A DNA stretch of 64,000 nt, from assembly GCF_000243415.2 (NCBI RefSeq), contig NZ_KI912270.1, positions 5,351,837-5,415,836 of the forward strand. Direction: 5' to 3'. Of this stretch, positions 59,652-63,339 are shown piece after piece. The stretch comes from Mycolicibacterium tusciae JS617 (GTDB lineage: Bacteria > Actinomycetota > Actinomycetes > Mycobacteriales > Mycobacteriaceae). The translations under genes were made by a program, and so were the position numbers. The notes under the pieces were generated by a model that searched no databases, was not told where the DNA came from, and saw only the letters and a program-made list of their open reading frames with translations. Numbering within the stretch: position 1 is the stretch's first letter; each line of letters opens with the position of its first letter.

Positions 59652-60080
59652 TTACGGCCGCGGCGATACCGGCACGCTTGGCTGCAGGGTGGTCGGCGGC
59701 TCCTGTGGCGGAGGCCGCCGGATGATCGAGATGGCCACCGCTCCCCCGGCCAGTACAGCTACCCCGAGTGCCGCGAGCAGCAGCGGACGCTTACGCCGAC
59801 GGGTGCGCGCCTTCTGCAACGCCTGCGGCAGGTTCGCCACCACTTCCTGGGCCGCCGCAAGTTCGGCGGCGATGGTGTCTTGCGCGGCGGCCAGCTCCTT
59901 GCCCAGCTGATCCTTCAGCCGGCTGCGGCGGTAGAGGTCGCCAATCCAGGCAGCAGATGACTGCGCACCGTCGACGCCGAGGCCCAACGCGCCCCGGGTG
60001 ACATCGACCGGACCGACCGCCGAATATTTGAGGCCGCGGGACAACCGCTCCCCAGGGGTCAAGCCGATCTCGGTCTTAGC
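59652..60080 (-). CDS. cwsA: CwsA cell-wall synthesis/division protein, 5' end interrupted by an IS
   Basis: A CwsA (Rv0008c) homolog of about 142 preserved residues: TPGERLSRGLKYSAVGPVDVTRG near the N-terminus, a coiled-coil/Ala-rich AAAQ segment (AAAQDTIAAELAAAQEVVANLPQALQ), one membrane helix (LLLAALGVAVLAGGAVAISII) and a Pro-rich tail. CwsA binds CrgA and Wag31 and supports polar growth. No start codon of its own is joined to it: it abuts the IS1380 left end, and the native ATG TTT lies at 61721-61726 on the far side. The frame stays open into the IS to 60224, so an altered protein could still be made from an IS-internal start. It is probably a natural knock-down or null allele. Confidence 0.8.
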   Translation of the reverse strand, partial: AKTEIGLTPGERLSRGLKYSAVGPVDVTRGALGLGVDGAQSSAAWIGDLYRRSRLKDQLGKELAAAQDTIAAELAAAQEVVANLPQALQKARTRRRKRPLLLAALGVAVLAGGAVAISIIRRPPPQEPPTTLQPSVPVSPRP

Positions 60081-61720
60081 CCGGATTTTTCGTGGAAACT
60101 TGGGTGTCGCGGGGTGTAGATAAGCGAAAGTGCCTGTCCTGCAAGGAATAATTGGACTTGTCAAGGGTTCAATCGTTCCAGCTGGAAGGCACCTCGCAAG
60201 TGAAGAATATCGCGGTCGCACCATGGGTGAAAGTCTCGGCCGACGGTCATGGTGTCGTGTCGCATGCCGGGATGGGCATGCTGCGCGAACTGGCGGACCG
60301 CACGGGCCTATCAGGGCAGGTCACCGCCGCGTTGGCCGACACCTACCGCGGCCCGTGGGTGTATGCCCCCGGGGAGGTGTTCGCCGATCTGGCGGCCGCA
60401 GTGGCCGACGGGGCGGACTGCATCGACGGGGTCGGGCAACTGTGCGGCGATCGTGAGCATGTGTTCGGCGCGAAGGCGTCGACGACCACGATGTGGCGGC
60501 TGGTCGATGAGCGGATCGACGCCGCACACCTGCCGGCGGTGCGGGCGGCACGTGCTGGGGCGCGGGCGGCAGCGTGGAGCGCCGGAGCCGCCCCCGCACC
60601 GGGTGTCTGGTTGCACATCGACATCGATGCCACGCTGGTCATCGATCACTCCGACAACAAGGCCGGCGCTACCCCGACCTGGAAGAAGACGTTCGGTCTT
60701 CATCCGCTGCTGGCGTTTTTGGATCGCCCGGAGATCGCCGGCGGGGAGGCCCTGGCCGGGATGCTGCGCACCGGCAACGCCGGCTCCAACACCGCCAGTG
60801 ACCACATCATCGTCCTGGAACAGGCACTGGCCGCTCTGCCCGCGGCGTGGCGGCCCGACCCCGACCATCCCGGCGACCCCGACAAGGCCCCGGTGCTGGT
60901 GCGCTGCGACACCGCCGGAGCCACCCACAGATTCGCCGACGCCTGCCGCACCGCCGGGGTGGGGTTCTCCTTCGGCTACCCCGTCGATGCCCGCGTACAG
61001 GACGCCGTGGACACCCTCAACCTCGGCCAGTGCTGGTATCCGGCGATCGACACCCACGGCGGCATCCGCGACGGCGCCTGGGTCGCTGAGGCCACCGACC
61101 TGGTCAACCTGGCCTCCTGGCCCGCAGGAACCCGGCTGATCCTGCGCAAAGAACGCCCCCACCCCGGTGCGCAGCTGCGGTTCACCGACGCCGACGGGAT
61201 GCGGGTCACCGCGTTCATCACCGACACCGGACCCGGTGTCGTGCCCGGCCAAGTCGCGGGCCTGGAACTACGCCACCGTCAGCACGCCCGCGTCGAAGAC
61301 CGCATCCGCGAACTCAAAGCCACCGGACTGCGCAACCTGCCCTGTCACTCCTTCTGGGCCAACGCCGCCTGGCTCGAAATCGTCCTGACCGCCGCCGATC
61401 TGGTCACCTGGACCCGGCTCCTCGGATTCACCGGCCAGCCCACCCTGGCCCGCGCCGAGATCACCACCTTCCGCTACCGGGTCCTGCACGTCGCCGCCCG
61501 CATCACCCGCGGTGCCCGCCAAGTCCGGCTGCGTATCGACGCCACCTGGCGATGGGCATCAGCGATCGCAACCGCCTGGCAACACATCCGCACCGCCTTC
61601 GGATAGCACCCTCCCCACCTGACCGACCAACGATGAAAGACCCACGGCACTGGGAAAGCCCGCCCCACCCGGCGACACGGGACAACACCGCCACGCCATC
61701 ACACGAAAACCACTACTCGG
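60080..61720. mobile_element. IS1380-family insertion sequence
   Basis: About 1.64 kb containing one transposase. The ends are inferred from where the cwsA reading frame breaks and resumes; the left begins CCCGGATTTTTCGTGG and the right ends CCACTACTCGG, sharing an imperfect inverted CC-G...TTTTCGTG. I could not identify a target-site duplication, and the exact boundaries may be off by a few bases. Confidence 0.75.
60152..61606 (+). CDS. IS1380-family transposase
   Basis: A 484-residue DDE transposase. The Asp residues fall in WLHIDIDATLVIDHS and LVRCDTAGATH, and the C-terminal signature RHRQHARVEDRIRELKATGLRNLP carries the Glu, resembling the YREK motif of the IS4/IS1380 group. The TTG at 60152 follows GCAAGGA. 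It is intact, with no frameshift, so the element may still be mobile. It is read away from cwsA, which is on the minus strand. Confidence 0.92.
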   Translation: MDLSRVQSFQLEGTSQVKNIAVAPWVKVSADGHGVVSHAGMGMLRELADRTGLSGQVTAALADTYRGPWVYAPGEVFADLAAAVADGADCIDGVGQLCGDREHVFGAKASTTTMWRLVDERIDAAHLPAVRAARAGARAAAWSAGAAPAPGVWLHIDIDATLVIDHSDNKAGATPTWKKTFGLHPLLAFLDRPEIAGGEALAGMLRTGNAGSNTASDHIIVLEQALAALPAAWRPDPDHPGDPDKAPVLVRCDTAGATHRFADACRTAGVGFSFGYPVDARVQDAVDTLNLGQCWYPAIDTHGGIRDGAWVAEATDLVNLASWPAGTRLILRKERPHPGAQLRFTDADGMRVTAFITDTGPGVVPGQVAGLELRHRQHARVEDRIRELKATGLRNLPCHSFWANAAWLEIVLTAADLVTWTRLLGFTGQPTLARAEITTFRYRVLHVAARITRGARQVRLRIDATWRWASAIATAWQHIRTAFG

Positions 61721-61726
61721 AAACAT
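61721..61726 (-). other. Displaced cwsA start (ATG TTT)
   Basis: On the minus strand ATGTTT at 61726-61721 joins in frame to GCT AAG ACC GAG at 60080 when the IS is removed, giving MFAKTEIGLTP; the spacing from Met to LTP equals that of M. tuberculosis CwsA as I recall it. Confidence 0.6.
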
Positions 61727-61890
61727 AATTCAGCGGCAGAACGACCCCGGATCAGTTCGATGCAAAATCGAGGTTAGCGCGCATCTCGCACCTCTCTCGG
61801 GCCGTAACGGGAATGGGTACCAGACTGCCACCAACCGCAACACAGCGGTGCCCGTTGAGCGCCGAACGGCGCGTGGCAGACTGGCATCCC

Positions 61891-62418
61891 GTGACGAGCC
61901 CCATACAGACACAGACCGCGACGCTGCACACCAATCGTGGTGACATCAAGATCGCGCTGTTCGGAAATCACGCACCCAAGACCGTCGCCAACTTCGTGGG
62001 ACTGGCGCAGGGCACCAAGGACTACAGCACCGAGAACGCGTCGGGCGGATCATCGGGTCCGTTCTACGACGGCGTGATCTTCCACCGGGTCATCAACGGA
62101 TTCATGATCCAGGGCGGCGATCCGACCGGTACCGGCCGCGGGGATGCCGGCTACAAGTTCGCCGACGAGTTCCACCCGGAACTGCAATTCGACAAGCCCT
62201 ATCTGCTGGCGATGGCGAACGCCGGACCCGGCACCAACGGATCGCAGTTCTTCATCACCGTCGGCAAGACGCCGCACCTGAACCGCAAGCACACGATCTT
62301 CGGTGAGGTTGTCGATCCGGAGTCGCAGAAGGTGGTCGACGCGATCGCGACGACAGCGACCGATCAGCGGGACAGGCCGACTGACCCGGTGGTCGTCGAA
62401 TCAATCACCATCGCCTGA
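61891..62418 (+). CDS. ppiA: Peptidyl-prolyl cis-trans isomerase A (cyclophilin)
   Basis: A 175-residue cyclophilin that catalyses prolyl isomerisation. The fold is clear: ATLHTNRGDIKIALFG, FYDGVIFHRVINGFMIQGGDPTGTGRG (catalytic Arg and Phe, about residues 53-79), and NGSQFFITVGKTPHLNRKHTIFGEV. The GTG at 61891 (VTSPIQTQT) was chosen; a GTG at 61873 would add six residues and resembles the longer M. tuberculosis start. A CAGACT box lies just upstream. It is downstream of the IS and convergent with the PH-domain gene. It corresponds to Rv0009. Confidence 0.95.
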   Translation: MTSPIQTQTATLHTNRGDIKIALFGNHAPKTVANFVGLAQGTKDYSTENASGGSSGPFYDGVIFHRVINGFMIQGGDPTGTGRGDAGYKFADEFHPELQFDKPYLLAMANAGPGTNGSQFFITVGKTPHLNRKHTIFGEVVDPESQKVVDAIATTATDQRDRPTDPVVVESITIA

Positions 62419-62993: not shown

Positions 62994-63257
62994 TCAGCGC
63001 CAGCGCATGGTGAGCAACAATCCAGTGATCATGAAAGCAAACGCGATCGCGTAATTCCACGGGCCCAGATCCGCCAAGAAGGGAATCGCGGAGGCCGCCA
63101 GCTGGAACACCAGCAGCCAGGCCAACCCGATCAGCATCAGGCTCACGAAGAACACGACGAACCAGACGCTTGACGGACCGGCCTTGACCTTGACCGGCGT
63201 CCGGCTCACCGGGCTGATGGTGAAGTCGTTCTTCTTACGAACCTTGGACTTGGGCAT
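62994..63257 (-). CDS. crgA: Cell division protein CrgA
   Basis: An 87-residue protein starting [23 protein letters not shown] (cytoplasmic) with two membrane helices ([21 protein letters not shown] and [16 protein letters not shown]). It is a divisome organiser interacting with FtsZ, FtsQ, PBPs and CwsA. The ATG at 63255-63257 was chosen; the open frame to 63350 was rejected because the family starts at MPKSK. It is divergent from the DUF881 gene and corresponds to Rv0011c. Its partner CwsA is disrupted in this genome. Confidence 0.96.
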
Positions 63258-63339
63258 ACGTACCTTCGGGACAGACGGCGTCACACGGTGCGACGATGTA
63301 TCTAGCCTATCGCAGGCATCACCCGTAGGAGACCAGCCA

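What the first reader, a model, noticed from the sequence alone, without database searches (positions are those of the whole stretch)
59652..61890. IS1380 element inserted between the second and third codons of cwsA
The cwsA body ends abruptly at 60080 where IS sequence begins, while ATG TTT in the correct orientation appears at 61721-61726 just after the IS. Joining them gives an in-frame start with the same Met-to-LTP distance as M. tuberculosis CwsA. This is a natural cwsA interruption in an otherwise intact divisome neighbourhood (crgA, ppiA present). cwsA mutants of M. smegmatis are reported to have polar/division defects, so the strain may carry a suppressor or express a chimeric protein from the IS.
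Basis: partly seen in the sequence, partly recalled or inferred. Interest (0 to 1): 0.75.

Follow-up and report, generated by a model that had tools for sequence, protein, structure and literature searches.

The report
Jumping element splits cwsA start
A common type of bacterial jumping element has landed a few codons into cwsA, a gene that helps mycobacteria grow at their poles and divide, cutting its start signal off from the rest of the gene; this is an ordinary kind of mutation in an unusual place.

Summary
Confirmed in substance, corrected in detail. A complete IS1380-family element of 1694 bp (60080-61773) sits in codons 3-4 of cwsA (minus strand). Five near-identical copies in the same genome fix its ends, and 5 of 5 are flanked by a 4-bp duplication, here TTAG (60076-60079 and 61774-61777). 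The real start is the ATG at 61784-61782, beyond the element; 6 of 6 intact relatives inspected have an ATG there. As the DNA stands, the native start reads 10 codons and stops inside the element. The rest of cwsA is intact, and its frame stays open 80 codons into the element, so a chimera is possible on paper, but no convincing outward promoter was found. Most likely: a recent insertion that silences or nearly silences cwsA, tolerated because single cwsA deletion is survivable (review passages). The own genome gave no second CwsA. The kind of event is ordinary; the gene hit is not.

The parts
60080..61773 (+). IS1380-family insertion sequence, 1694 bp, complete; tips CCCGGATTTTTCG (left) and CCTCGATTTTGCA (right, read inward)
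   Evidence: five copies in own genome share these ends
60200..61606 (+). transposase gene, 468 aa from GTG 60200 (start choice inferred; a TTG at 60152 opens the same frame, 484 aa); complete
   Evidence: NF033539 transpos_IS1380 positions 1-419 of 419, 348 bits; PF13701; frame read
60076..60079 (.). target duplication TTAG, left copy
61774..61777 (.). target duplication TTAG, right copy
59652..60079 (-). cwsA body, frame intact, whole CwsA domain; cut off from its start codon
   Evidence: PF10814 positions 1-134 of 134; 82.2% and 84.5% DNA identity to L054 and L053
61774..61784 (-). start side of cwsA: ATG at 61784-61782 and the next codons up to the IS; as the DNA stands it reads 10 codons and stops in the IS (stop ends at 61752)
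61785..61890 (.). intergenic region between cwsA start and likely ppiA start, not broken by the IS; holds the presumed native cwsA ribosome site
   Evidence: 61774-61960 aligns at 84.6% to L053 and L054
61813..62418 (+). ppiA (cyclophilin-type isomerase), intact; GTG at 61891 is a likelier start than the ORF's ATG at 61813
   Evidence: PF00160; start choice is inference
62994..63275 (-). crgA, intact
   Evidence: PF06781 positions 1-89 of 89

Best explanation
A recently transposed, complete IS1380-family element (a relative of the group that NCBI's annotation calls ISMav7) inserted at a TTAG site in codons 3-4 of cwsA and duplicated those 4 bp (shown). It separates the ATG and its upstream region from the otherwise intact coding body (shown). 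The native start now gives at most a 10-residue peptide (shown from sequence; expression inferred). The body lies beyond the transposase 5' end, in antisense direction, with no recognisable promoter, so cwsA is most likely silent or only weakly expressed (inferred). The strain tolerates this because cwsA alone can be deleted in mycobacteria, and crgA and a DivIVA-family (presumably Wag31) gene are retained here.
For: Ends and 4-bp duplications in 5 of 5 full own-genome copies; transposase complete; both cwsA sides align to one contiguous intact locus in L053 and in L054; one CwsA match in the genome; no sigma-70-like site in 60000-62000 (0 found, 0.3 expected); two other own copies are 100% identical to this one over 1694 bp, so the insertion is recent unless copies were homogenised. 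Review PMC3989709 (passages): single cwsA deletion did not influence Z-ring localisation but harmed growth and morphology and altered Wag31 localisation. crgA and one DivIVA match retained.
Against: The cwsA body has no internal stop or frameshift and its frame stays open 80 codons into the IS with ATG, GTG and TTG starts; a GGAA stands about 11 nt before TTG 60164 and a TTG at 60062 in the body could also start translation. The consensus scan does not cover many mycobacterial promoters, and one TANNNT match exists at 60209-60204. No expression data. The assembly may show one of several states in the culture.
Confidence: 0.72

Rival explanations
1. The IS supplies an outward promoter and a start codon (ATG 60224, GTG 60221 or TTG 60164), so a chimeric CwsA is still made; or translation starts at the internal TTG 60062 and gives a nearly native protein.
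For: Frame open 80 codons into the IS with three start codons; full CwsA domain retained; one TANNNT element upstream and a GGAA about 11 nt before TTG 60164; outward promoters are documented in some IS1380 members (PMC9330008, passages).
Against: The passages place those promoters' action next to the element's 3' end; cwsA is at the transposase 5' end. No sigma-70-like match. In cwsA's phase the related elements L061 and L062 are open for 27 codons without a start and L043 for 13 with one GTG; only L042 is open for 80 with an ATG. In this IS one of three phases offers an ATG, so an open fusion is no surprise.
Confidence: 0.2
2. Assembly artefact: repeated IS copies led to wrong joining, and cwsA is whole in the organism.
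For: Five near-identical copies longer than a short read.
Against: Both flanks are neighbours in L053 and L054 and carry the same TTAG; each other copy has its own matching pair (CTAG, CTAA, CTAG, CTAA). Swapped flanks would break both patterns. The assembly has 4 contigs.
Confidence: 0.03
3. The insertion was selected because it changes ppiA or cwsA dosage (for example read-through from the transposase raises ppiA).
For: Transposase and ppiA point the same way, and documented IS1380 outward promoters act on that side.
Against: The cwsA-ppiA intergenic region is whole; no promoter match at the right end; a recent insertion needs no selection.
Confidence: 0.05

Closest known systems
ISMav7 group of IS1380 (M. 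avium plasmid copies L061, annotated so, and L062, where no transposase is annotated)
   Same: 86% DNA identity over the whole element, 1690-1694 bp, same kind of tips, CTAG duplication in both; the two copies have the same flanks and may be one event
   Different: about 14% DNA divergence; name taken from the annotation of L061, not checked against ISfinder, which is not available here
CwsA (PF10814; M. tuberculosis Rv0008c per PMC3989709)
   Same: one copy, domain complete, near crgA and ppiA; the cwsA-ppiA order is the same in L054
   Different: start codon separated from the body by the IS
ISEcp1 and ISPme1 (IS1380)
   Same: family and transposase type
   Different: their outward promoters act on genes next to the element's 3' end (PMC9330008, passages); here the broken gene lies at the transposase 5' end and no promoter was seen
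Transposase of Mycobacterium phage Guillsminger
   Same: only phage record hit, 41% protein identity over 97%
   Different: distant

Membership tests
IS1380 family | DDE transposase of the IS1380 type | tested here: met
   NF033539 348 bits against a cut-off of 180, positions 1-419 of 419
IS1380 family | imperfect terminal inverted repeats beginning with CC (norm recalled, from no call) | tested here: met
   CCCGGATTTTTCG / CCTCGATTTTGCA; 21-nt arms 60077-60097 and 61756-61776, 71% complementary, which include part of the duplication
IS1380 family | 4-bp target duplication (norm recalled, from no call) | tested here: met
   5 of 5 own full copies; 17 of 26 relative loci with a tip pair and readable flanks, 9 without
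ISMav7 (the same named element) | near-identical DNA to the named element | tested here: not met
   86% to the copy annotated as ISMav7 family; a relative, not the same element; the ISfinder entry itself could not be consulted
CwsA | PF10814 domain | tested here: met
   positions 1-134 of 134, 159.7 bits
CwsA | functional expression from its own start | not testable with these tools
   the DNA shows the start separated by the IS and one extra target copy; expression unknown

The most novel reading that the evidence does not exclude
The strain lives with cwsA rewired by the IS: an antisense promoter inside the IS 5' end drives an IS-CwsA chimera with up to 48 IS-encoded N-terminal residues at a new level, altering polar growth, so this isolate is a natural test of how much the native CwsA N-terminus and dosage matter.
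Probability: 0.12. Interest if true: 0.45.

Novelty: new member of a known kind. Interest (0 to 1): 0.25.

Why it matters
A CwsA match is nearly universal in the genus (291 of 296 genomes; a match there does not prove an uninterrupted gene, since the own broken copy counts too). A wild genome in which the gene is cut from its start is a natural experiment on whether CwsA is needed outside the laboratory. The work also gives exact ends for a mycobacterial IS1380 element and a target tendency (mostly YTAR, a central TA in all readable duplications), which helps annotate other insertions. Otherwise it is an ordinary IS insertion.

Tried and rejected
Rejected: a second cwsA elsewhere (one match). 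Looked for a sigma-70-like promoter or terminator in 60000-62000: 0 and 0 found, 0.3 and 1.4 expected. Looked for TANNNT facing cwsA in 60330-60070: one, at 60209-60204, about what I would expect by chance from a rough estimate of my own that no call made. Tested whether the open fusion frame belongs to the element: absent in 3 of 4 relatives compared, present in L042. Target rule: TTAG is the only YTAR in the cwsA body, but 66% of 428-bp stretches of the window hold none at all, and the body also has CTAC and GTAG, types seen in 3 of the 17 duplications in relatives, so the rule explains the site only in part.

Limits of the counts: only 13 candidates per genome were scored and the match list was cut, so I did not inspect every CwsA match for breaks; one listed match (G079) has a TAG inside and several genomes have split or weak matches. 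In one search only two candidates per genome were scored. In one search, 36 of 61 genomes matched the IS at E <= 0.001, most by short stretches.

Papers: ISMav7 gave no paper. cwsA with insertion sequence and mycobacter gave two: PMC8025370 read as passages, where cwsA is listed in a hypermutated region and no IS interruption of it is mentioned; PMC11925935 seen as a listing only. seen as listings; PMC5596344, PMC3989709 and PMC9330008 as passages. Plocinski et al. 2012 is not held and is known here only through others. I did not search further for published IS insertions in cwsA.

Full report
What is there. The finding lies in a 7.3-Mb genome of four contigs (window at C4:5351837-5415836). 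The nearest intact cwsA loci found in named records are a Mycobacteriaceae MAG (L053, 88% protein identity in the best segment, query residues 1-129) and Mycolicibacterium tusciae DSM 44338 (L054, 87%). On the plus strand the frame 60152/60200-61606 is a complete IS1380-family transposase (NF033539, 348 bits against a cut-off of 180, positions 1-419 of 419; PF13701). On the minus strand 59652-60079 carries the whole CwsA domain (PF10814 1-134 of 134). ppiA (PF00160) and crgA (PF06781 1-89 of 89) look intact.

Exact borders. A search of the own genome found ten matches, five of them spanning the element. Against window 60080-61773, two of the other four copies are 100% identical over 1694 bp, one has a single gap, and one has 2 mismatches and 4 gaps (99.6%); all match to the same two tips. 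Each is flanked by its own 4-bp duplication: TTAG here (60076-60079 and 61774-61777), CTAG, CTAA, CTAG and CTAA at the others; 5 of 5. The tips CCCGGATTTTTCG and CCTCGATTTTGCA are imperfect inverted repeats; the repeat finder gives 21-nt arms at 71%. The stretch 61715-61773, including the ATGTTT at 61721-61726, is identical in all five copies, so it is IS sequence.

Where cwsA really starts. Kept as two separate queries, the body piece (59652-60079) aligns to L053 and L054 at 84.5% and 82.2% over 426 columns, and the start-side piece (61774-61960) at 84.6% over 188 columns to both; in each relative the two matches meet with an overlap of 2 bp. The intact L054 cwsA begins with ATG and codes for 143 aa. 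An ATG stands at the same place in 6 of 6 relatives inspected (L053-L057 and L060; L058 and L059 of the eight loci were not inspected). In the window this ATG is 61784-61782.

What the break does to the frames. As the DNA stands, the native ATG reads 10 codons and stops within the IS (stop ends at 61752). The body frame runs 80 codons up into the IS with a TTG, a GTG and an ATG (60164, 60221, 60224), giving at most 190 aa, 48 codons of it from the IS; a TTG at 60062 lies in the body itself (136 aa). No sigma-70-like promoter was found in 60000-62000 (0 against 0.3 expected), which does not exclude other promoter types; one TANNNT faces cwsA at 60209-60204, and a GGAA stands about 11 nt before TTG 60164. 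In this phase L061, L062 and L043 are closed within 13-27 codons, while L042 is open for 80, so the open frame looks like chance. Passages of PMC9330008 describe IS1380 outward promoters acting next to the element's 3' end; that side faces ppiA here. Hence silencing, or weak expression, of cwsA is the most likely outcome. This step is inferred.

How unusual. A CwsA match was found in 31 of 36 other same-genus genomes in a first sample (of the five misses four are under 90% complete and one is 93%) and in 291 of 296 genomes of the genus at 95% completeness or more, own included (the five misses are drafts of 220-520 contigs, and only 13 candidates per genome were scored). A match does not show that the gene is uninterrupted: the own broken copy counts as one. 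I did not check the others for IS insertions, so I cannot say how rare this is. The own genome has one CwsA match, the broken one, one CrgA and one DivIVA match, over positions 1-56 of 131, presumably Wag31. [quoted passage not shown] Survival without cwsA, with crgA kept, fits that.

The element and its target. At E <= 1e-100, 35 of 248 genomes of the genus, own included, carry relatives; only two candidates per genome were scored, so copy numbers are not counted; the best listed foreign match is 88%. Plasmid records hold 15 matches; two M. avium plasmids match over the full length at 86%, one of them annotated as ISMav7 family. Target sites were read in 29 of the relative loci fetched (L042, L064-L091): 27 had a pair of tips within 3 mismatches each; L080 reads N outside and was dropped; of the other 26, 17 show a 4-bp duplication and 9 do not, some of these by wrong tip pairing. 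All 17 have a central TA; 14 are YTAR, 2 CTAC, 1 GTAG. TTAG at 60076 is the only YTAR in the cwsA body. None of the six relatives inspected has a YTAR in the first 15 bases of cwsA, so the target probably arose in this lineage. This helps to explain the position but is weak evidence, since 66% of stretches of that length in the window have no YTAR.

Verdict. A real, precisely bounded and, by its identical sister copies, recent IS1380 insertion that separates cwsA from its start. The kind of event is well known; its interest is that it hits a nearly universal divisome gene in a wild genome. Whether any CwsA is made needs RNA and protein data.

Noticed in passing
L003 3198-3201 (own genome C4, IS copy): The right-hand duplication of this IS copy overlaps the stop codon of an ORF with AA_kinase and PUA domains (glutamate 5-kinase by my reading); the L005 copy begins 12 bp past the stop codon of a rhodanese-domain ORF. 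YTAR contains stop-codon letters, so this element may favour gene ends.
   Followed up: partly
L006 and L008 (own genome C4:4990060-4993402): A relative of the IS (84-85% identity) is present as two separated parts, with further fragments at L009 (C4) and at L007 and L010 on the 218-kb contig C3.
   Followed up: no
L004 167-832: A MerB-type alkylmercury lyase ORF (PF03243) ends about 670 bp from one IS copy.
   Followed up: no
window 61607-61890: The transposase points towards ppiA, so read-through from the IS could reach ppiA; the region between cwsA start and ppiA is intact.
   Followed up: partly
window 1-64000: YTAR is scarce: 69 sites (1.08 per kb) against 7.17 per kb expected from base composition; 11 overlap a stop codon of 51 non-overlapping ORFs of at least 100 aa picked by length, 36 lie inside those ORFs, 22 outside.
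   Followed up: partly
G079:C96:1379-1783: Another genome of the genus has a full-length CwsA match with a TAG inside it.
   Followed up: no
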